This document shows, piece by piece, positions 397 through 11,906 of a DNA stretch of 12,209 nucleotides (positions within the stretch are counted from its first letter, which is position 1; every line of letters starts with the position of its first letter). A program made the position numbers and the translations under genes. Under the pieces are notes generated by a model. The model did not search any database, was not told where the DNA came from, and worked only from the letters and a program-made list of their open reading frames with translations. Source of the stretch: Pseudomonadota bacterium (GTDB taxonomy: Bacteria > Pseudomonadota > Gammaproteobacteria > Xanthomonadales > Rhodanobacteraceae); assembly GCA_021783385.1 (NCBI GenBank), contig JAJXTX010000054.1, forward strand, positions 1 through 12,209, given 5' to 3'.

Positions 397-537
397 ATGC
401 ATCGCGCGTTTCGCCAGATGAGGATGATTGCATCCTCGGCCTTGGGCGCCGTGATTGCCATGACGCAAATCAAGCAGCCGCAAGGCCCGGTGGGGCCGAT
501 GCCGTTTCAGCGCGGCCGCTTGATGCAAACAGGGTGA
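397..537 (+). CDS. Possible small ORF, 46 residues, unknown
   Basis: An ATG at 397 (alternative in-frame ATG at 418) opens a 46-residue frame ending at TGA 535-537. The middle has a short hydrophobic stretch (ASSALGAVIAM), followed by a Pro/Gly/Gln-rich tail. Third codon positions are GC-rich (about four in five from the 418 start), as expected for coding DNA here, but the region is GC-rich anyway. A GGGGG run sits only 2 bases before the 397 ATG, too close for a good ribosome binding site. No family recognised; this may be chance. Confidence 0.15.
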   Translation: MHRAFRQMRMIASSALGAVIAMTQIKQPQGPVGPMPFQRGRLMQTG

Positions 538-576
538 GCTTCGACCGCCGGATTTCGTTCCGCTCAGGTCGCACGC

Positions 577-708
577 ATGTTCCTGCGTCATGGCCTGGCG
601 CCAGTCCGCTCCGGTCGCTGCGGCTTCGACCCGTGGCGCGTGCTGATGTGCACCGCATCGCGCGCCCGCCCTGCACTGGCGAAGCTGCTCCAGGCAGCGT
701 ATGGGTAG
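577..708 (+). CDS. Possible small ORF, 43 residues, unknown
   Basis: An ATG at 577 opens a 43-residue frame ending at TAG 706-708, just ahead of the start of the CHASE3-GGDEF-EAL gene. It contains RCGFDPWRVLMC and ends ALAKLLQAAYG. About four in five third positions are G or C, compatible with coding. No good Shine-Dalgarno precedes the ATG. If translated it would be a leader-like ORF 22 bases upstream of the next start. No family recognised. Confidence 0.15.
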   Translation: MFLRHGLAPVRSGRCGFDPWRVLMCTASRARPALAKLLQAAYG

Positions 709-718
709 ATTACAAAAC

Positions 719-725
719 GAGGTGA
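719..725 (+). promoter_or_regulatory. Ribosome binding site that sets the start at 731
   Basis: GAGGTGA lies 5 bases before the ATG at 731. The in-frame ATG at 701 has no comparable site, so 731 is preferred. Confidence 0.7.
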
Positions 726-730
726 CGGGT

Positions 731-2692
731 ATGCCCCACCGAATCCGCGTGACCATTGAAAACAAGGTGCTGTATGTCTTTGTGCTGGGCCTGTTGCTGC
801 TGATTCTCTCGGGCCTGCTCGCGCTGTATGAGGTGCATGGTCTGCTGGCGAGCGAATCGCGGCGCATGCAGCTGCATCATGCGCAGCTGACAACCGAGCA
901 GCTGCTGTCGGCGCTGCAGGACGCCGAAACCGGCCAGCGCGGGTACCTTCTGACCGGCCTGCCATCGTACCTGCAGCCCTACTATGAAGCCCGGTTGCAC
1001 TTGCGCGGGATCGACCAGGAGATGCACGCGGCCTTGCGCAGCGAGCCGCGCTATGCCGCTGAGCTGGCCGATGTCGACCGCCTCACGCGCCTCAAGCTGG
1101 CCGAGCTGGAGGCCACCGTGGCGCGGCGCAGCCAGGGCGGCTTGAACGCGGCGCTGCCGGAAGTACTCAGCGGCAACGGCAAAGTCGTGATGGATCGCAT
1201 CCGCGCCGATCTGGACAGCATCCAGTCGGGGCTGCAGGCACAGATCAGCGCGATCAAGCTGAGCCAGGGTCAGCGCATGACGCGCGCGTGGACCAGCCTG
1301 TTGGCGCTGAGCCTGCTGCTGGCGATCGTGCAGGGCGTTGTGTACGCGCTGGTCGTGCGCGAACTGCGCGAAAAGCGCCGGCTGAAGGGCCGTCTGCGCG
1401 AACATCTCGGTCTCGACGCACTGACCGGCCTGCCGACCGGCGCGTTCCTGATCGAGTGGATTCGCTACAGTCTTGCCCAGGCTCGGCGCGACGGCTCGCA
1501 TGTGGCGTTGTTGCGCATCAACCTCGACGAGTTCCGCAGCGTCAATGCGCGGCTGGGCGAGGCCGAGGGCGACCGCGCGCTGATCGAGGCCGCCAGCCGC
1601 CTGCTGACCACGGCGCGCAGTTCCGATGTGGTGGTGCGTCTGCAGGGCGATGAATTTGCGGTGTTGATGCCGGGCCTGCAGGCTGCCGAGGAATCGGCAG
1701 TCTGTGCGCAGCGCCTGATCGACGCGTTTTCGCTGCCGTTACTGCCCAGTCTGCAGGAACAGCACATCGGCGCGAGCATCGGCATCGCGCTGTTTCCGCA
1801 GGATGGAGTCACGCCGGCCGACCTGCTGGCGGCAGCCGGGCAGGCGCAGAAGTCTGCCAAGGCGGCGGGCAAGAACCGGCATCAGTTCGCCACGCCCCAG
1901 GTCGAACTCAGTGCGACGCGTCTGCAGACCCTGCACAACGACTTGCATCGCGCGTTGGAGAGCCACGAGTTCTATCTGGTCTATCAGCCGGAAATCAGCC
2001 TGGCCAGCGGACGCGTCACCGCGGTCGAGGCGCTGCTGCGCTGGCGCCATCCTCAGTTGGGCGAAATCAGTCCGGACGAGTTCATTCCACTGGCCGAGCG
2101 CAGCGGCCTGATCCTGCCGATCGGCGCCTGGGTGCTGCGCCAGGCGTGTGCGCAGACCATGCGCTGGCGGCGTGAGCATGGGCACAGCCTGAGATTGTCC
2201 GTCAACGTCGCTACCGGTCAGCTGGAGGGCGGCGAGTTCGTCGCGCTGGTGCGCGAAGTGCTGGCGCAGACCGCGCTGCCGGCGGGCGATCTGGATCTGG
2301 AGATCGTCGAGCGTCTGCTGCTGAAGGAAGACGCCGCTGACGCGCTGGGCGGGCTCAAGGGGCTGGGCGTTCGCCTGGTGATCGACGATTTCGGCACCGG
2401 CTATTCAAGCCTCGGCTATCTGCGTCGTTTTTCGGTGGATACGCTGAAGATCGACCGCAGCTTCATCAGTGGCCTGCCCGAGAGTCGCGGTGACGCGGCG
2501 ATGGCGAGATCGATCCTGGCGATGGCCGCAGAACTGGACATCAGCGTGGTGGCCGAGGGCGTGGAGACCGAAGCCCAGGCCAGCTTCCTGCGTGAAGCGG
2601 GTTGTTCGCTGGCGCAGGGTTATCTGTTCGCGCGCCCACTCGCTGTCGCCGACGTGCCGGCGTTTCTGGAAATGCGCGCAAGCGCACCATGA
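731..2692 (+). CDS. Membrane-bound CHASE3-GGDEF(degenerate)-EAL protein, probable c-di-GMP phosphodiesterase
   Basis: The 653-residue product has TM1 at about 12-32, a periplasmic CHASE3-like domain with the signature DAETGQRGYLLTG (64-76), TM2 at about 187-209, a GGDEF domain starting near LDALTGLP (228), and a C-terminal EAL domain. The GGDEF motif is QGDEF (305-309): the first Gly is replaced by Gln, so cyclase activity is doubtful, yet the I-site RSSD (296-299) is kept. The EAL domain keeps the main catalytic elements: EALLRW (433-438), the Asn in SVNVATGQL, the Glu in LEIVE, DDFGTGYSS (552-560), Lys573 in KIDRSFI, and AEGVE (608-612). It should therefore hydrolyse c-di-GMP to pGpG, perhaps tuned by GTP or c-di-GMP bound to the GGDEF domain. 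It lies 210 bases upstream of the Wsp operon in the same direction, suggesting opposed control of one c-di-GMP pool. The exact input signal is unknown. Confidence 0.9.
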   Translation: MPHRIRVTIENKVLYVFVLGLLLLILSGLLALYEVHGLLASESRRMQLHHAQLTTEQLLSALQDAETGQRGYLLTGLPSYLQPYYEARLHLRGIDQEMHAALRSEPRYAAELADVDRLTRLKLAELEATVARRSQGGLNAALPEVLSGNGKVVMDRIRADLDSIQSGLQAQISAIKLSQGQRMTRAWTSLLALSLLLAIVQGVVYALVVRELREKRRLKGRLREHLGLDALTGLPTGAFLIEWIRYSLAQARRDGSHVALLRINLDEFRSVNARLGEAEGDRALIEAASRLLTTARSSDVVVRLQGDEFAVLMPGLQAAEESAVCAQRLIDAFSLPLLPSLQEQHIGASIGIALFPQDGVTPADLLAAAGQAQKSAKAAGKNRHQFATPQVELSATRLQTLHNDLHRALESHEFYLVYQPEISLASGRVTAVEALLRWRHPQLGEISPDEFIPLAERSGLILPIGAWVLRQACAQTMRWRREHGHSLRLSVNVATGQLEGGEFVALVREVLAQTALPAGDLDLEIVERLLLKEDAADALGGLKGLGVRLVIDDFGTGYSSLGYLRRFSVDTLKIDRSFISGLPESRGDAAMARSILAMAAELDISVVAEGVETEAQASFLREAGCSLAQGYLFARPLAVADVPAFLEMRASAP

Positions 2693-2740
2693 TGCGCCGC
2701 TTGCACCGGTCATCAGCTGCACAGAGTCTCCGATAGTCAT

Positions 2741-2902: not shown

Positions 2903-4525
2903 ATGTCGAAGATTTCCATCAGGCAGCAACTCAGTCTGTTTGCCTTGTCGCTGGGAGTGACGCTGCTGGTGGTCGGTGCGGTGGGCCTGAAGGTGATGGC
3001 AGACACCTCCGTAGCCATGCGGCTGACCTACGCGGACCGAATCGTTCCGATGCGACAGTTGAATCTGGTTGAAACCAGCTACGGTATCGAGATCCCCAAC
3101 GCCGCCTACCTGGTGCAGGCCGGCAAGGTGGATTGGGAGCCGGCGTTGACCCGGGTGACGCAGGCCGAGATGCTGGCCAGGTCGGCCTGGGATGCCTACA
3201 CCCGAACCCTGCTGGATGAGCACGAACTCCAGCTGGTCGGCGACATGAATCCGATCCTCCGGAACGCCGACCTGGCGGTGGACCAGCTGAAGGAATTGTT
3301 GCGCACCCACAATCGCGCCGCGCTCGACCAGTTCCGGCTGGATGTGCTGCAGCCGGCGCTGGCCCCGATCACGCAGAAGATGGCTGCGGCGATCGACTAT
3401 CACGAACAGCAGGCCAGGAGCGCCGATCAGCAGCAGGCCCGCGAGTTCAGTGTGGCGCGATGGATTTTCGTGCTGACGGTGCTGGCGGGGGCGCTGCTTG
3501 CGCTGGCGCTCGGCCGCTGGATCCTGCGGGCACTGAACGTGCCGCTCGAACAGCTGGTGCAGAAGACCGGGCAGCTGGCTGCGGGCGATCTGAGCGTGCG
3601 CGTGACGGTGGTGGCGGACAACGAACTGGGCCGGTTGGCGCGCGCCTTCAACCAGATGGCGGACAGTCTGCAGGAGCTGGTCTCCCGCGTGCAGCGCAGC
3701 GGCATCCAGGTGGCCAGCTCCGCCACCGAAATCGCCGCCTCGGTGCGCGAACAGCAGGCGACAGCGACCGAACAGGCCGCCACCACCACGGAGATCGTGG
3801 CTTCGACCAGGGAGATCGCCAGCACCTCGCGGGTACTGGTGAAGAACATGGACGAGGTGGCGCATGTGGCCGATGCGACCTCGGCGCTGGCCGAAGGCGG
3901 ACGCGAGGATCTGGGTCGCATGGAAACGACCATGAACCAGATGATGGAATCCACCCAAGGCATTGCTTCACGCCTCGCCGTGCTGAGCGAGAAGGCCGGC
4001 AACATCAATACCGTGGTGAAGACCATCAACAAGGTCGCCGATCAGACCAACCTGCTTTCGTTGAACGCTGCGATCGAGGCGGAGAAGGCCGGCGAACACG
4101 GCCTCGGCTTCGGCGTCGTGGCGACCGAAATCCGGCGCCTGGCCGACCAGACGGCGGTCGCCACCTGGGACATCGAGCAGATGGTGAAGGAGATGCAGTC
4201 GGCGGTGTCCTCCGGCGTGATGGGCATGGAGAAGTTTTCCGAGGAAGTGCGCCAGGGCGTCGCCCGGGTCGGGCAGGTGGGCGAGCGTCTGTCCCGGATC
4301 GTGAAAAGCGTGCAAACGCTGACCCCGCATTTCGAGTCCGTGTATGAGGCGATGCAGGAGCAATCGAAGAGTTCCGAGCAGATCAACCTCGCGCTGGAGC
4401 AATTCAGCCAGACGGTGCAAGGTACGGCGGAGGCAATGCGCGAATCGGCACAGGTGGTGGATCAGCTCAACGAGGCATCGCATCGCATGCAGGATGCGGT
4501 GGCGAGGTTCAAGGTCTCGGCCTGA
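2903..4525 (+). CDS. wspA: WspA-type methyl-accepting chemoreceptor
   Basis: The 540-residue product is the sensor of the Wsp system, an inner-membrane receptor that in Pseudomonas responds to surface contact/envelope stress. TM1 is at about 10-33, a helical periplasmic domain of the four-helix-bundle type spans about 34-185, TM2 about 186-204, and HAMP about 207-260. The cytoplasmic signalling hairpin follows. Probable methylation residues recur at seven-residue spacing (Glu283/Gln284, Glu290/Gln291, Glu297, Glu304), suitable for WspC methylation and WspF demethylation. The hairpin tip includes VADQTNLLSLNAAIEAEKAG (378-397). The following ADQTAVATWDIEQMVKEMQ is the feature that most resembles WspA rather than ordinary chemotaxis receptors. 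There is no C-terminal NWETF-like pentapeptide; the protein ends RFKVSA. The next gene starts 1 base after the stop, indicating one operon. Confidence 0.92.
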   Translation: MSKISIRQQLSLFALSLGVTLLVVGAVGLKVMADTSVAMRLTYADRIVPMRQLNLVETSYGIEIPNAAYLVQAGKVDWEPALTRVTQAEMLARSAWDAYTRTLLDEHELQLVGDMNPILRNADLAVDQLKELLRTHNRAALDQFRLDVLQPALAPITQKMAAAIDYHEQQARSADQQQAREFSVARWIFVLTVLAGALLALALGRWILRALNVPLEQLVQKTGQLAAGDLSVRVTVVADNELGRLARAFNQMADSLQELVSRVQRSGIQVASSATEIAASVREQQATATEQAATTTEIVASTREIASTSRVLVKNMDEVAHVADATSALAEGGREDLGRMETTMNQMMESTQGIASRLAVLSEKAGNINTVVKTINKVADQTNLLSLNAAIEAEKAGEHGLGFGVVATEIRRLADQTAVATWDIEQMVKEMQSAVSSGVMGMEKFSEEVRQGVARVGQVGERLSRIVKSVQTLTPHFESVYEAMQEQSKSSEQINLALEQFSQTVQGTAEAMRESAQVVDQLNEASHRMQDAVARFKVSA

Positions 4526-6265: not shown

Positions 6266-6941
6266 GCTGCACATTGATGATTGCTGGAACCGGGTCGGTG
6301 TCTGGTCAAGGACTGGCTCCAGCTGTTCGCGGCTGATCGATGCGGTGCATTGTCACCACTGCGAGGTCTACCGCGTTGCCGGGCGCGCTCTGCTGGATCG
6401 GCCGCTGTCGCCACAGGCCCGTCAGCAATGGGACGCGAGCTATGCGCAACCGACTTTGCCGCAGTTGCGCAAAGGCACCTCCTGCACCGTGTTTCGCCTC
6501 GGCGAGGAGTGGTTGGCGATTCCCACACTGGCGATCAAGAGCGTTGGTGCGCCGGTGCCGGTCCGGCGGATCCCGCACCGAAGCAACCCGGTGCTGCGCG
6601 GCATGGCCAACCTGGCCAGCGAACTCGCGCTGGTAGTGTCGTTGACCACCCTGCTGGGCATTGCCGATGAGCCGGCGCCGGGCCAGCCGTCGGAACTCCG
6701 GCGCGCCCAGCCGATTGCCCGCCTGCTGTGGGTGCTCGGCGAATCCGGCTCGTTCGCGTTTGAAGTCGCCGAAGTGTCAGGCACCCACCGCTACGAGGAA
6801 ATTCGCCTCGAGCCGGTGCCCAGCACACTCGAAAAGGCCGTGCGGCGCTATGTGCGTGGCACCCTGGAAGTAGCGGGCCGGCGTGTCGGCATGCTGGATT
6901 TCGGGCTGCTTGCCTACGCCGTCGGGCAGGCACTGAAATGA
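6246..6941 (+). CDS. wspD: CheW-like coupling protein WspD with N-terminal four-cysteine motif
   Basis: The 231-residue product (GTG start; ATG 6255 would give 228) is the second coupling protein of the Wsp array. Its N-terminus precedes the CheW fold and carries four cysteines: DDCWNRVGVW (Cys13), SSCS (Cys27) and HCHHCEVY (Cys36, Cys39), then ALLDRPLSPQARQQW. As I recall, WspD proteins in general begin with this DDCWNR...C...HC..C pattern, which distinguishes them from WspB. The CheW domain (about 75-228) includes TVFRLGEEWLAIPTLAIKSV and NPVLRGMANLASELALVVSL. The spacing of the cysteines resembles a metal-binding site, but no function is established here. The stop overlaps the wspE start by ATGA (6938-6941). 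Confidence 0.9.
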   Translation: MNAMTDELHIDDCWNRVGVWSRTGSSCSRLIDAVHCHHCEVYRVAGRALLDRPLSPQARQQWDASYAQPTLPQLRKGTSCTVFRLGEEWLAIPTLAIKSVGAPVPVRRIPHRSNPVLRGMANLASELALVVSLTTLLGIADEPAPGQPSELRRAQPIARLLWVLGESGSFAFEVAEVSGTHRYEEIRLEPVPSTLEKAVRRYVRGTLEVAGRRVGMLDFGLLAYAVGQALK

Positions 6942-9202
6942 CCGCGCGCGGACCCGATCTTGCGGCCATGTCGATGCGCGAACTGCTGCGCCTGGAGGTG
7001 GATACGCAATCCCGTGTGCTGATCGACACACTGCTGAAGCTGGAGCAGGGCGTCGTGGACGATCGCCAGCTGGAAGCGATGATGCGCGCCGCCCACTCGG
7101 TCAAGGGTGGCGCGCGCATCGCCGAGTTGCCGGCGATGGTGGAGCTGGCCCACGTGATGGAGGATCTGTTCGTGGCGGCCCGCGGCGGGCAGGTCCTGCT
7201 GCATCGGGAACGCGTGAATGCCTTGCTCGGGGCGGTCGACCTGCTGATTGAGCTGGCGCGGATCGGCGCCACCCAGGACGAGCTGCCGGCGGAACTGGTG
7301 GAACGTGCCGCGCGCATGCGCGAGGTTGTGCTGAGGCCGGATTCGGCCCCGGAGCCCGTGGCTTCCAGCGCCGCCGCCGTCCCGTCCGGGGCTCCGTATC
7401 CGGTCCCGGCACGACGCGCCGGCGATGCAGCAGAGTCTGCCGCTGGCGCGCCATCCGGGGCGGTCCGCACGGTGCGGGTCAGTGTCGACAGCATGAATCG
7501 GCTGATGGCGCTGGTCGGCGAATTGAGTGTCAAGGATCGCGCGGCGGCGGCGATCCGCGGTGAGGCGCTGCAGGCGCGGCGGCAGCTGCGCGAGGCCACC
7601 AGCGCGCTGGACGGGCTGCGTCAGCAACTCCACGATCAGCCGTTCGCCGGGCGCTGGCTGGCCGCGCTGGACGCGACCACCGGCAAGATCGGGCAGGCGG
7701 ACGAATTTCTGATCCGGGGCGCCGGTGCCCTGGAGAGTCACGATGCGCATATCGCGAATATCACCCGTCAGCTTCAACGCGAGGTCATCGCGCATCGGAT
7801 GCAGCCATTCGGCGACGGGTTGCAGGGTTTCCGGCGGCTCGTGCGGGAGCTGGGCAAGACGCTGGGAAAGGAGCTGGTGCTTGAGGTCAGCGGCAGTGAA
7901 GTCGGTGTCGATCGGGATATTCTGGAACGCCTCAACGCGCCGCTTACCCACCTGATCCAGAATGCGGTTGATCACGGTATCGAAAGCCCCGCGGACCGCG
8001 TGGCGGCCGGCAAGCCGGCAACTGGCACGATCCGGCTGTCGGCCCGGCACCGCGGCGGACTGTTGTCGATCGTGCTGGAGGACGATGGTCGCGGCATCGA
8101 TCTGGAACAGGTTCGCCAGGTCGTGCTGGACAGGAAGCTGGTGGGTGAAGCAGTGGCCGGCGCGCTGCAGGAACAGGAGCTGATCGAGTTCCTGTTTCTG
8201 CCCAATTTCACCCTCAGCCGGCAGCTTTCCGACATTTCCGGTCGTGGCGTCGGGCTGGATCTGGTGCGCCATACCTTGCGCGAGGTGCGCGGTACCATCC
8301 GCCTGGCAACCCAGGCCGGTGTCGGCGTACGTATCGAAATCACCCTGCCGGTGACCCTGATCGTGCTGCGCTGCCTGATCGTCTCGATCGCCGGCGAACT
8401 GTTCGCGCTGCCCGTGGGGCGGATTGCGCGCGCCGTGCAAGCCGAGCGTCGCCGCGTTCTCTCACTGGAAAGCCGCCAGTACCTGATGCTCGATGGCCAC
8501 CAGATCGGGCTGGTCAGTGCTGCCGAGGTGCTGCAGCTGCCGGGTGAGGCCTCGGCCACGGACGACCTTGCCGTGGTGGTGCTGGCCCAGGGGCAGGAGC
8601 GGTATGGCCTGGTCGTCGACCGCCTGGTGGGCGAGCGGTCATTGGTCGAACGACCGCTGGATGCCAGGTTGGGCAGTGTCGAGGGTGTCGCTTCGGCGTC
8701 GCTGCTGGACGATGGTTCCCCGGTGCTGATCCTGGATGTCGACGATATCCTGCATGCGATTGAACAGCTGACCAGCGGACGTGGCTTGCAGCGGCTCGGC
8801 GAAGCTGCGCAAAGCGGGCAGGAAGTCCGGCGCAAGCGTGTCCTGGTGGTGGACGATTCGATTACGGTGCGTGAAGTGGAACGCAGCCTGCTGAGCTTGC
8901 AGGGCTATGCCGTGGACGTCGCCGTCGACGGCGTGGAAGGCTGGAATGCGCTTCGCACGGGCGACTACGAGCTGGTGGTGACGGACGTGGATATGCCGCG
9001 GATGGATGGCATCGCGCTGGTGAAATTGATCCGCGCCGACGCCAGGTTGCAGCGCCTGCCGGTCATCATCGTGTCCTACAAGGATCGCGAAGAGGACCTG
9101 CTCGCCGGACTGGAAGCCGGTGCGGATCGCTATCTGACCAAGGGCAGTTTCCAGGATGACACGTTCGTGCACACCGTCGCCTCCCTGATCGGCGAGCCCT
9201 GA
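6938..9202 (+). CDS. wspE: Hybrid CheA-type histidine kinase with C-terminal receiver, WspE
   Basis: The 754-residue kinase autophosphorylates on its Hpt domain and passes phosphate to WspR and WspF. The P1/Hpt domain (about 1-115) has MMRAAHSVKGGAR with His53 as the phosphorylated residue. A Pro/Ala-rich linker (about 125-175) replaces the P2 domain of chemotaxis CheA. P3 dimerisation follows (about 178-290), then the P4 ATPase with N-box HLIQNAVDHGIE (338-349, Asn342), G1 EDDGRGID (381-388) and G2 SGRGVGLD (434-441). P5, the CheW-like regulatory domain, starts near 490. The receiver (633-752) has VVDDS (Asp639/640), phosphoacceptor Asp683 in TDVDMPRMDG, and Lys735 in LTKGSF, all intact. The length, lack of P2 and attached receiver match WspE. 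A start at 6968 is possible, but the ATGA overlap favours 6938. Translation is probably coupled to wspD. Confidence 0.93.
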   Translation: MTARGPDLAAMSMRELLRLEVDTQSRVLIDTLLKLEQGVVDDRQLEAMMRAAHSVKGGARIAELPAMVELAHVMEDLFVAARGGQVLLHRERVNALLGAVDLLIELARIGATQDELPAELVERAARMREVVLRPDSAPEPVASSAAAVPSGAPYPVPARRAGDAAESAAGAPSGAVRTVRVSVDSMNRLMALVGELSVKDRAAAAIRGEALQARRQLREATSALDGLRQQLHDQPFAGRWLAALDATTGKIGQADEFLIRGAGALESHDAHIANITRQLQREVIAHRMQPFGDGLQGFRRLVRELGKTLGKELVLEVSGSEVGVDRDILERLNAPLTHLIQNAVDHGIESPADRVAAGKPATGTIRLSARHRGGLLSIVLEDDGRGIDLEQVRQVVLDRKLVGEAVAGALQEQELIEFLFLPNFTLSRQLSDISGRGVGLDLVRHTLREVRGTIRLATQAGVGVRIEITLPVTLIVLRCLIVSIAGELFALPVGRIARAVQAERRRVLSLESRQYLMLDGHQIGLVSAAEVLQLPGEASATDDLAVVVLAQGQERYGLVVDRLVGERSLVERPLDARLGSVEGVASASLLDDGSPVLILDVDDILHAIEQLTSGRGLQRLGEAAQSGQEVRRKRVLVVDDSITVREVERSLLSLQGYAVDVAVDGVEGWNALRTGDYELVVTDVDMPRMDGIALVKLIRADARLQRLPVIIVSYKDREEDLLAGLEAGADRYLTKGSFQDDTFVHTVASLIGEP

Positions 9203-9321: not shown

Positions 9322-10347
9322 ATGCGTATCGCCATCGTCAATGATCTGGATGCCGTCAGGCGCTTGCTGCGCCACGCCGTATGCAGCCAGCCCGGCTGGC
9401 AGATCAGCTGGGAAGCGCACGATGGCGAGGAGGCGATCCGCCGGTGCGCGCAGGACACCCCCGACCTGATCCTGATGGATCTGCTGATGCCCGGAAAAAA
9501 AAATGGCGCCGAGGCCACCCGGGCCATCATGGCGACCTGCCCCTGTCCCATTCTCGTGGTGATGGCGGAGGTGGCCGGGCATGACCCGCTGGTTTTCGAG
9601 GCGCTGTCCGCCGGCGCGCTGGATGTGGTGAACTGCCCGACGAGCCTGGATCCGTCAGATCAACAGGGCCTGGTTGCCAAGATCCAGCTCATCGCCAGAC
9701 TGACGGGCCACTCGCTGCGCCCCAGACAGGTGTTGCCCGCGCCACCCGCGCAGACGCTTGCGCGCGCCCCGCTGGTGGTCATCGGTGCTTCCGCGGGAGG
9801 GCCGGCCGCGCTGCGCGTCCTGCTGGCGGAATTGCCCGAGACCTATCCTGTTCCCATCGTGATCGCCCAACATCTGGACGAGAAATTTGCCGGCGGCATG
9901 GCCGACTGGCTGTCATCGGTCAGCCGCCTGGCGGTGGTCGTTGCGCAGCCGGGAGATCGACCGCAAGCCGGTCGCGTGATGCTGGCAGGCACCAATCAGC
10001 ACCTGGTGATGCGTGAGAATGGCGAGCTGGTGTACGCGGCGGAACCGCTCGACCAGCCCTACCGGCCGTCAGTGGACGAGCTCTTTGCGAGTGTGGCGCT
10101 CTACTGGCCGGGGTCGATCATTGGTGTTCTGCTTACCGGCATGGGCCAGGATGGTGCGCGGGGTCTGCTGGCATTGCGCCGACTGGGCCACTTCACGTTT
10201 GCGCAGGACCGGCAAAGCGCGGCCGTCTATGGCATGCCGGGCACCGCCGCGCAGTTCGGCGCGGCAATAACCCAGATGAACCCAGCCGCGATTGGCCGCG
10301 AGCTGGTCAGAATGGCGGCAACTCAGTCGATGATTTCCATGAAGTGA
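9322..10347 (+). CDS. wspF: CheB-type receptor methylesterase WspF, carrying an A9 tract
   Basis: The 341-residue protein should remove methyl groups from WspA and so damp Wsp signalling. The receiver domain (about 1-120) starts MRIAIVND, with phosphoacceptor Asp53 in LILMDLLMPG. The usual receiver Thr/Ser and Lys positions look replaced (LVVMAEV; VVNCPTSL). The methylesterase domain (about 145-335) keeps the catalytic triad context: Ser in VIGASAGGPAA, His in IAQHLDEKFAGG and Asp in LTGMGQDGARG. The loop after Asp53 reads MPGKKNG, one residue longer than the usual MPxxDG/MPxxNG, and is encoded by nine consecutive A residues (9495-9503). A one-base change in this run would stop translation at about 9560 or 9582 and remove the esterase domain. 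In Pseudomonas, loss of WspF gives constitutive Wsp activity and high c-di-GMP. Confidence 0.92.
   Translation: MRIAIVNDLDAVRRLLRHAVCSQPGWQISWEAHDGEEAIRRCAQDTPDLILMDLLMPGKKNGAEATRAIMATCPCPILVVMAEVAGHDPLVFEALSAGALDVVNCPTSLDPSDQQGLVAKIQLIARLTGHSLRPRQVLPAPPAQTLARAPLVVIGASAGGPAALRVLLAELPETYPVPIVIAQHLDEKFAGGMADWLSSVSRLAVVVAQPGDRPQAGRVMLAGTNQHLVMRENGELVYAAEPLDQPYRPSVDELFASVALYWPGSIIGVLLTGMGQDGARGLLALRRLGHFTFAQDRQSAAVYGMPGTAAQFGAAITQMNPAAIGRELVRMAATQSMISMK
9495..9503 (+). repeat. Homopolymer tract A9 inside wspF
   Basis: Nine consecutive A residues cover the last base of Gly58, Lys59, Lys60 and the first two bases of Asn61. It is the longest homopolymer I noticed in this GC-rich window. In the reading frame it also forms the heptamer A AAA AAA, a known type of slippery sequence. 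Losing one A leads to TGA at 9560-9562; gaining one A, or a -1 slip, leads to TGA at 9582-9584. Confidence 0.95.
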
Positions 10348-10359
10348 CGAGGACAGGTA

Positions 10360-11388
10360 ATGGACGAGACGAATGAACCGCTCACCAATGAGCCCGAATT
10401 GGCCAGTTACCCGCCCTACCTGGTGATGCTGGTCGATGACCAGCCGATGGTGGCCGAGGCGCTGCGACGCATCCTGACGGTGGAATCGGATATGGATTTC
10501 CACTACTGCGGCGAACCCGGCAGTGCCCTGAAAATCGCGGGGGAAATCAAGCCGTCAGTGATTCTGCTCGATCTGGTGATGCCGGATATTGATGGGCTGA
10601 CCGTACTGCGCGCGTTGCGCGAACACGCCGCCACCCGGATTGTCCCGGTTGTGGTGCTGTCCTCCCAGGAGGACGCGGCGATGAAGGCGGAAGCCTTTGC
10701 CGTCGGGGCCAATGACTATCTGATCAAATGGCCGGATCGGATCGAATTGCTGGCGCGACTGCGTTACCACTCCCAGTGGTACAGCAACATGCAGCAACGC
10801 GACGAGGCATTTCGTGCGCTGCGGGTGAGTCAGCGCAAGCTGGCGGAGAGCAATCTCAAGTTGCAGCGCCAGGCGGCGGTCGACGGGTTGACCGGCATAC
10901 CCAACCGGCGCTATTTCGACGAACGTTTCGAGGAGGAGTGGAAGCGTGGTGCGCGCGAGCAGGAGTGGCTTTCGCTGATCATCCTGGATGTCGATCATTT
11001 CAAGTTGTACAACGACCGCTACGGGCACATGGCGGGCGATGAATGTCTCAAGGCCGTGGCCCAGGTCATCGCCGGCAGCTTGCTGCGCCCCACGGATCTG
11101 GCCGCCCGCTATGGGGGCGAGGAGTTTGTCCTGATCCTGCCCAATACCGATCAGGCGGGCGCGGAAGTCGTCGCCGGGAACATGCGCAAAGCGGTCGAAG
11201 CCCTCGGCATTCCGCATGCCCGGTCCGCTACCGGCGCGGTCGTCACGGTGAGCCTGGGTGTGGCGACCACGGTGCCGACGGAGCACGACCAGGCGCAAGG
11301 ACTGCTGGCCGAGGCCGATACCGCGCTCTACGCAGCCAAGGAAGCCGGGCGCAATCGTTATGCCATTGCACCGCTGATGCGCGCATGA
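10360..11388 (+). CDS. wspR: Response-regulator diguanylate cyclase WspR (REC-GGDEF)
   Basis: The 342-residue output protein of the Wsp system makes c-di-GMP from two GTP when phosphorylated by WspE. The receiver (about 19-140) has LVDDQ (Asp26/27), phosphoacceptor Asp71 in LLDLVMPDIDG and Lys123 in LIKWPD. A helical stalk (about 141-172) leads to the GGDEF domain, which opens VDGLTGIPNRR (174-184). It keeps the metal site DVDHFKLYNDRYGH (210-223), the active-site GGEEF (252-256) and the inhibitory I-site RPTD (243-246). Numbering is within one residue of what I recall for P. aeruginosa WspR (Asp70, GGEEF 251-255). All key residues are intact, so it should be an active, feedback-inhibited cyclase. 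A GAGGA ribosome binding site lies 6 bases before the ATG. The stop overlaps the next gene by ATGA. Confidence 0.95.
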   Translation: MDETNEPLTNEPELASYPPYLVMLVDDQPMVAEALRRILTVESDMDFHYCGEPGSALKIAGEIKPSVILLDLVMPDIDGLTVLRALREHAATRIVPVVVLSSQEDAAMKAEAFAVGANDYLIKWPDRIELLARLRYHSQWYSNMQQRDEAFRALRVSQRKLAESNLKLQRQAAVDGLTGIPNRRYFDERFEEEWKRGAREQEWLSLIILDVDHFKLYNDRYGHMAGDECLKAVAQVIAGSLLRPTDLAARYGGEEFVLILPNTDQAGAEVVAGNMRKAVEALGIPHARSATGAVVTVSLGVATTVPTEHDQAQGLLAEADTALYAAKEAGRNRYAIAPLMRA

Positions 11389-11906
11389 GTGAAACCGCGG
11401 GAGTGTCGCCGGGGTTGCGGATCTTGCTGGTCGACGACGAGCAGGCCGTGCTCACGGCGTGGCAGCACGATCTGTCGCCCCTGCACGGCGACGTGGAGGC
11501 CTTCACCCAACCCCGGCAGGCGCTGGCCAGGGCAGGCAGCACCGCCTTTGACCTGCTGATCACGGGCTACCGGATGCCCGGCATGGATGGGCTGAGTCTG
11601 GTCAAGGCGCTGAAGAAGCTTCAGCCCGCGCTGATCGTGATCATGCTGAGCGGGTTGGCCGATCTGCGTGCCAGCATGGCCACGCGTGGAGCGACGGAGG
11701 GCTTTCATTTTCTTACCAAGCCATGGGACGCGGCCGAGCTCCGCGCCCTCATTCACAAAGCTCTGATAGCTCGCAGCCAGGGCAAACCTCAGCCGCTCGA
11801 GGTGGCGTCGCCGTCGAGCAGGCCCAAGGGCGCACTGGCGACACTGGAAGCGAAATATCCCGGCATCACCGTGCCGGGGTCGGACTGGCATCCGGTTCGT
11901 CGGTAG
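11385..11906 (+). CDS. Wsp-linked single-domain pseudo-receiver (phosphoacceptor Asp replaced by Gly)
   Basis: The 173-residue protein is one receiver domain (about 11-133) plus a 40-residue tail. The acidic pocket ILLVDDEQ (Asp17, Asp18), Ser89 in IMLSGLAD and Lys112 in FLTKPWD are all present, and the strand reads DLLITGYRMPGMDG (56-69). Family members have TDYRMPGMDG here, so the phosphoacceptor Asp is Gly61, encoded by GGC, one base from GAC. It therefore probably cannot be phosphorylated in the usual way. The tail contains LATLEAKYPGITVPG, a segment I recall in some other single-receiver proteins, with no function known to me. The ATG overlaps the wspR stop by ATGA, so the gene is probably co-translated with the operon. 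It is not one of the seven described Wsp genes. It may bind WspE or WspR as a regulator; alternatively it is decaying. Confidence 0.85.
   Translation: MSETAGVSPGLRILLVDDEQAVLTAWQHDLSPLHGDVEAFTQPRQALARAGSTAFDLLITGYRMPGMDGLSLVKALKKLQPALIVIMLSGLADLRASMATRGATEGFHFLTKPWDAAELRALIHKALIARSQGKPQPLEVASPSSRPKGALATLEAKYPGITVPGSDWHPVRR

What the first reader, a model, noticed from the sequence alone, without database searches (positions are those of the whole stretch)
9495..9503. A9 mononucleotide tract in wspF: candidate slippage switch for the Wsp/c-di-GMP pathway
Seen: nine consecutive A residues in a GC-rich gene, in frame, directly after the receiver phosphorylation motif. Either one-base change stops translation within about 30 codons and removes the whole esterase domain. 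Known: in Pseudomonas, wspF loss of function is a frequent route to constitutive WspR activity (wrinkly or rugose small-colony types). Inference: replication slippage here could create reversible ON/OFF subpopulations for biofilm, i.e. a contingency locus in a chemosensory gene.
Basis: partly seen in the sequence, partly recalled or inferred. Interest (0 to 1): 0.85.

Follow-up and report, generated by a model that had tools for sequence, protein, structure and literature searches.

The report
Lineage-specific A9 run inside wspF
A biofilm-control gene carries nine A's in a row that its relatives lack; they add one amino acid next to the protein's phosphate switch, and nothing found here shows them working as an on/off switch.

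Summary
The A9 run at 9495-9503 is real and in frame in an intact wspF (9322-10347); a one-base change either way stops translation at codon 80 or 88. It exceeds chance.

Between the MP motif and the conserved Gly, 119 of 121 aligned WspF-like proteins have 3 residues. The two with 4 are the window and a protein differing from it by one residue. The sister genome (86% identical) has no run. Of 41 other loci examined, none has an A run longer than 4 there. No off-frame product of this species appeared in two protein searches, but reads could not be examined.

So this looks like a lineage-specific in-frame length change, not a conserved contingency locus. It sits in a WspF clade whose receivers have often lost switch residues: 12 of 21 sequences deviate, against 0 of 99 outside, while the esterase triad is invariant. 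I infer that relaxed phosphorylation control let the extra codon persist. Against this, Asp53 is kept and the receiver is still under purifying selection. A switch is unsupported but not excluded.

The parts
9495..9503 (+). A9 homopolymer in wspF
9493..9504 (+). codons 58-61 (GGA AAA AAA AAT, Gly-Lys-Lys-Asn), one codon longer than in relatives
9322..10347 (+). wspF, CheB-type methylesterase with receiver domain, 341 aa, frame open
   Evidence: dN/dS 0.21 against the sister
9328..9642 (+). receiver domain of WspF (PF00072, residues 3-107)
9478..9480 (+). codon of Asp53, presumed phosphorylation site, kept
   Evidence: alignment; Asp53 of Lysobacter enzymogenes WspF tested in PMC9758175 (passage)
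9562..9564 (+). codon 81, Met where 114 of 120 aligned rows (one search set) have Thr
   Evidence: columns; deviations listed
9775..10305 (+). methylesterase domain of WspF (PF01339, residues 152-328), triad Ser157, His184, Asp277 intact
6938..9202 (+). wspE, CheA-type kinase with receiver, the presumed phosphodonor
   Evidence: receiver residues intact by eye
10360..11388 (+). wspR, receiver-GGDEF diguanylate cyclase
   Evidence: receiver residues intact by eye
2903..4525 (+). wspA, methyl-accepting receptor, presumed WspF substrate

Best explanation
The A9 run is a lineage-specific, in-frame length change in wspF. Shown: it makes the loop after the phospho-accepting Asp53 one residue longer than in relatives, and the gene stays open. 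Inferred: it arose by slippage or insertion of three bases in an already A-rich stretch. Inferred: it was tolerated because this WspF clade leans less on the canonical phosphorylation switch of its receiver; the receiver is kept as a fold or docking part while the methylesterase goes on removing methyl groups from WspA and so holds WspE and WspR down. Any slippage at A9 today would be a mutational liability that now and then gives WspF-null cells with raised c-di-GMP, like other wspF mutations, and not an evolved switch.
For: The sister (86% identical) reads GGGATAAATGG, one codon shorter and without a run. The loop is 3 residues in 119 of 121 rows and 4 in the window and P0004. No A run longer than 4 at this place in 41 other loci. 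wspF is under purifying selection: dN/dS 0.21 overall, 0.145 in the esterase part. In an esterase-only tree the window lies in a clade of 21 rows (support 100/99) where 12 of 21 deviate at Asp8, Asp53, Thr81 or loop length, against 0 of 99 outside; triad invariant in all 120. WspE and WspR receivers look intact. No off-frame product found.
Against: Asp53 is kept in the window, and the receiver part has dN/dS 0.23, so it is still constrained. In Lysobacter enzymogenes changing Asp53 of WspF alters biofilm, so phosphorylation matters in a relative (passage of PMC9758175). The 12 of 21 rows are related and mostly metagenomic; most of the outside set (63 of 99) was not in the tree; and the outside set is the window-like part of a larger family. 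No reads, no structure and no biochemistry were available.
Confidence: 0.6

Rival explanations
1. Contingency locus: replication slippage at A9 turns wspF off and on reversibly, and the run is kept by selection for mixed biofilm and free-living subpopulations.
For: A one-base change either way truncates WspF. The run is rare for the genome and improbable by codon choice. Homopolymers raise indel rates, longer ones more (passage of PMC12344412).
Against: Not conserved in the sister or in 41 other loci. P0004 keeps the in-frame form. No off-frame product found. In the MAG no family of such tracts in surface genes was seen, though only runs of 8 or more were looked at. Ten other wspF loci have A/T runs of 7 or 8 elsewhere in the gene, so long runs in wspF are not special.
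Confidence: 0.1
2. The extra codon makes WspF a weaker enzyme or a receiver stuck in the inhibiting form, so this lineage has constitutively raised WspR output.
For: The extra residue lies next to Asp53 in a loop of otherwise fixed length. In P. [quoted passage not shown]
Against: Purifying selection on the whole gene and intact triad argue for a working protein, though a recent change would not show in dN/dS.
Confidence: 0.14
3. RNA polymerase slips at A9 and makes a fixed share of off-frame mRNA, so the run sets WspF dosage without any DNA change.
For: Nine A's in dnaX of Thermus thermophilus give about half short product by transcriptional slippage, and nine is the length at which many genomes avoid A/T runs in genes (passages of PMC1088944).
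Against: The short products would end at codon 80 or 88, inside the receiver fold, so no useful second protein is evident. Not conserved. The RNA after the run is not unusually structured (z -0.49), which speaks only against ribosomal frameshifting.
Confidence: 0.08
4. The run length is an assembly or sequencing error.
For: The source is a fragmented, 80% complete MAG.
Against: The frame is open for 341 codons; a protein differing at one other residue and listed with a contig of 8,878 bases, not 12,209, also has KKN. Its DNA was not seen, its sources are not shown, and it may come from the same sample, so independence is not proven.
Confidence: 0.04

Closest known systems
WspF, the CheB-type methylesterase of the Wsp system
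   Same: Receiver plus methylesterase domains, esterase triad, Asp53, position between wspE and wspR. NCBIfam model NF009206 for CheB passes its cut-off, and several relatives are called WspF by a source.
   Different: One residue more in the phospho-site loop and Met for Thr81.
Homopolymer contingency loci (phase variation by slipped-strand mispairing)
   Same: A mid-gene mononucleotide run whose one-base changes truncate the protein.
   Different: No length variation or conservation seen.
Transcriptional slippage at A9 in Thermus thermophilus dnaX
   Same: Nine A's in frame in a gene, stops nearby in both other frames (passage of PMC1088944).
   Different: Early in the gene, no functional short product evident, not shown to slip.
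wspF T812G mutation hotspot in Pseudomonas
   Same: A local sequence that raises the rate of wspF mutation (passage of PMC12344412).
   Different: There a substitution beside a G run, not an indel tract.

Membership tests
WspF | receiver and CheB methylesterase domains | tested here: met
   PF00072 and PF01339 above cut-off
WspF | esterase triad Ser-His-Asp | tested here: met
   Ser157, His184, Asp277 invariant in 120 rows
WspF | encoded in a wspA-F, wspR operon | tested here: met
   gene order and domains; names by domain and order
WspF | canonical receiver switch (acidic residue 8, Asp53, Thr/Ser81, loop length) | tested here: not met
   residues 8 and 53 present, residue 81 is Met and loop is one longer; a variant, not a defining feature for filing as WspF
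WspF | demethylates WspA and restrains WspR | not testable with these tools
   needs bench work
homopolymer contingency locus | length changes shift the frame | tested here: met
   stops at codon 80 and 88
homopolymer contingency locus | tract conserved or recurrent in relatives | tested here: not met
   absent in the sister and at this place in all 41 other loci examined
homopolymer contingency locus | length varies within a population, reversibly | not testable with these tools
   no reads; indirect protein searches found no off-frame product
transcriptional slippage site | run of nine or more A/T in a gene | tested here: met
transcriptional slippage site | off-frame mRNA or protein is made | not testable with these tools
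   no RNA or protein data

The most novel reading that the evidence does not exclude
In this WspF clade the phosphorylation feedback from WspE to WspF has been given up, so the Wsp system runs open-loop; in this species slippage at A9, in DNA or in RNA, has become the means of setting how much working WspF a cell has, giving c-di-GMP subpopulations without phospho-feedback.
Probability: 0.07. Interest if true: 0.75.

Novelty: new variant of a known kind. Interest (0 to 1): 0.33.

Why it matters
WspF is usually drawn as a phosphorylation-controlled brake on c-di-GMP. A well-supported clade in which the receiver repeatedly loses its switch residues while the esterase stays intact would mean that the brake can run with little or no such control, and that can be tested directly. 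The A9 run itself matters mainly as a likely mutational weak point. If it were shown to switch, it would be a contingency locus in a c-di-GMP chemosensory gene; I saw none described in the listings, which cover open-licence PubMed Central papers only.

Tried and rejected
Rejected: chance composition; a broken wspF (open frame, triad, dN/dS 0.21); a conserved programmed frameshift (tract not conserved, following RNA unremarkable). Unlikely: assembly error.

Led nowhere: looking for further genomes of the window's WspF clade with P0011 in 398 genomes of the order and 398 of the phylum gave, at clade-like identity (63%), only the sister in the first and the window itself in the second; the other hits were 49-56% identical.

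Organism: unnamed MAG. The sister record is titled 'Proteobacteria bacterium isolate DX1.bin48'. I take the order to be Xanthomonadales because a held genome of the same order resembles Lysobacter capsici in size and WspF identity; that is inference.

Rows dropped or limited: one search examined the window and 41 others; it left out L009 (same locus as L007) and the weaker CheB-type matches L014-L024, and kept L013, which aligns badly at the site. Of the matches in other genomes, 20 had no locus and were not examined. Searches left out P0093 (no receiver), one search also P0004. The tree held 57 rows; the other 63 outside rows were taken as outside because they are less similar to the window. 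Two clade rows and one outside row have a gap at column 8 and were counted as not deviating. first counted 8 of 17 against 1 of 100 with the groups cut by similarity rank (17 nearest relatives, window and sister rows not counted); after the tree placed P0026 inside the clade, one search counted 12 of 21 against 0 of 99, window and sister rows included. So the cut was drawn after seeing the data. Searches list cluster representatives at 90% identity, and 18 and 39 list only the best 120, so minority forms could be hidden.

Full report
What is there. The window is a whole contig (C326) of a 2.83 Mb MAG in 377 contigs, 79.8% complete. By Pfam domains and order it holds a wsp operon: receptor (wspA), CheW (wspB), CheR (wspC), CheW (wspD), kinase with receiver (wspE), CheB (wspF), receiver-GGDEF (wspR). 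A CHASE3-GGDEF-EAL gene precedes it and a single receiver gene follows. wspF is 9322-10347, 341 aa. Nine A's stand at 9495-9503, in frame; losing or gaining one base stops translation at codon 80 or 88.

More than chance. None of 200 dinucleotide shuffles of the window gave A9 or T9; 18 of 5000 synonymous-codon shuffles gave A9 at this place. The MAG has six A/T runs of nine. By eye, three of the other five look like terminator tails, one lies near a contig end, and one lies in a 299-aa open frame. C/G runs of eight or more number nine, the longest ten.

What was missed. Between the MP motif and the following Gly, 119 of 121 aligned WspF-like proteins have three residues; the window and P0004 have four. 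The sister genome, 86% identical, reads CCCGGGATAAATGGC, one codon shorter, no run. Of 41 other loci examined, none has an A run longer than four there, although ten have A/T runs of seven or eight elsewhere in the gene. The simplest reading is a net gain of one codon in this lineage. P0008, about 66% identical, has Pro-Gly-Lys-Asn-Gly, which hints at an A-rich ancestor; its DNA was not seen.

Does it vary? Reads were not available. Searching for proteins the size of a truncated product gave 18 hits, the best 60% identical. Searching with the part after the run gave 629 proteins, best 120 listed; only the full-length P0004 matched this species. P0004 differs from the window at one linker residue and keeps KKN. 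It is listed with an 8,878-base contig and without sources, so it may be a second strain or another assembly of the same sample.

Is WspF working? Against the sister, dN/dS is 0.21 for wspF: 0.23 in the receiver part, 0.70 in the linker, 0.145 in the esterase part. The other seven genes compared give 0.12 to 0.27. Three in-frame indels separate the eight genes: two codons in wspC, one in wspE, one in wspF. Only the wspF one lies beside a phosphorylation site.

The receiver. Window and sister have Met where nearly all other rows have Thr81. A tree from the esterase domain alone, 57 rows, puts them in a clade of 21 rows with support 100/99. In it 12 of 21 rows have lost Asp8, Asp53 or Thr81 or changed the loop length, against 0 of 99 outside. 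Read by eye on the tree these are about eight separate changes: Asp8 and Thr81 to Ala in a group of three, Asp53 to Gly, Asp53 to Ser, Asp8 to His, Asp8 to Ser with a two-residue deletion, Asp8 to Gly in a pair, Thr81 to Met, and the extra codon here. The esterase triad is invariant in all 120 rows. The rows are not independent, 63 of the 99 outside rows were not in the tree, and the clade cut was drawn after a first count by similarity rank (8 of 17 against 1 of 100). The WspE and WspR receivers keep their key residues by eye.

How it most likely works. WspF goes on demethylating WspA and holds the pathway down (established in Pseudomonas; for Lysobacter enzymogenes, passages of PMC9758175). 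In this clade the phosphorylation input seems relaxed, so an extra residue in the phospho-site loop was tolerated; this step is inferred. Against it: Asp53 is kept, the receiver is still constrained, and in L. enzymogenes changes of Asp53 alter biofilm. The run is probably indel-prone (general rule, passage of PMC12344412) and may give rare WspF-null cells. wspF mutants arise at scattered places in a species studied for it, Pseudoalteromonas lipolytica (passages of PMC8919034), and are poorly fit in two Pseudomonas species (passages of PMC11631409), so loss of wspF is not favoured everywhere.

Rivals. A true contingency locus, a weakened WspF allele, RNA-level slippage as in Thermus dnaX (passage of PMC1088944), and assembly error are set out with odds in their field. 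None is excluded.

Papers. Passages only: PMC12344412, PMC3441735, PMC6324874, PMC8919034, PMC8115180, PMC1088944, PMC9758175, PMC11631409. Listings only: the other papers. Roles of the receiver residues and of the loop are recalled from general knowledge of CheY-like domains.

Noticed in passing
window 11385-11906 (+): The single-domain receiver gene after wspR has Gly where the phospho-accepting Asp is expected (LLITGYRMPGMDG); the sister has the same, dN/dS 0.26. It may be a kept pseudo-receiver partner of the Wsp system.
   Followed up: partly
window 505-2694 (+): The stretch with the CHASE3-GGDEF-EAL gene (701-2692) is absent from the sister, where the same flanks lie about 110 bases apart.
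   Followed up: partly
P0012, P0017, P0019 (database proteins): Relatives in the same WspF clade with a two-residue deletion near the phospho-site (P0012) or with Asp53 replaced by Ser or Gly (P0017, P0019).
   Followed up: partly
P0093 and P0142 (database proteins): Relatives 64-66% identical with the esterase domain but no receiver (252 and 205 aa). They may be cut by contig ends or be true receiver losses.
   Followed up: no
family-level genomes: wspF is patchy: 8 of 233 genomes of the family (window included) had a match at E 1e-70, and the two other same-genus copies besides the sister are only 51-53% identical to the window, less than several metagenome proteins, which suggests horizontal gain.
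   Followed up: no
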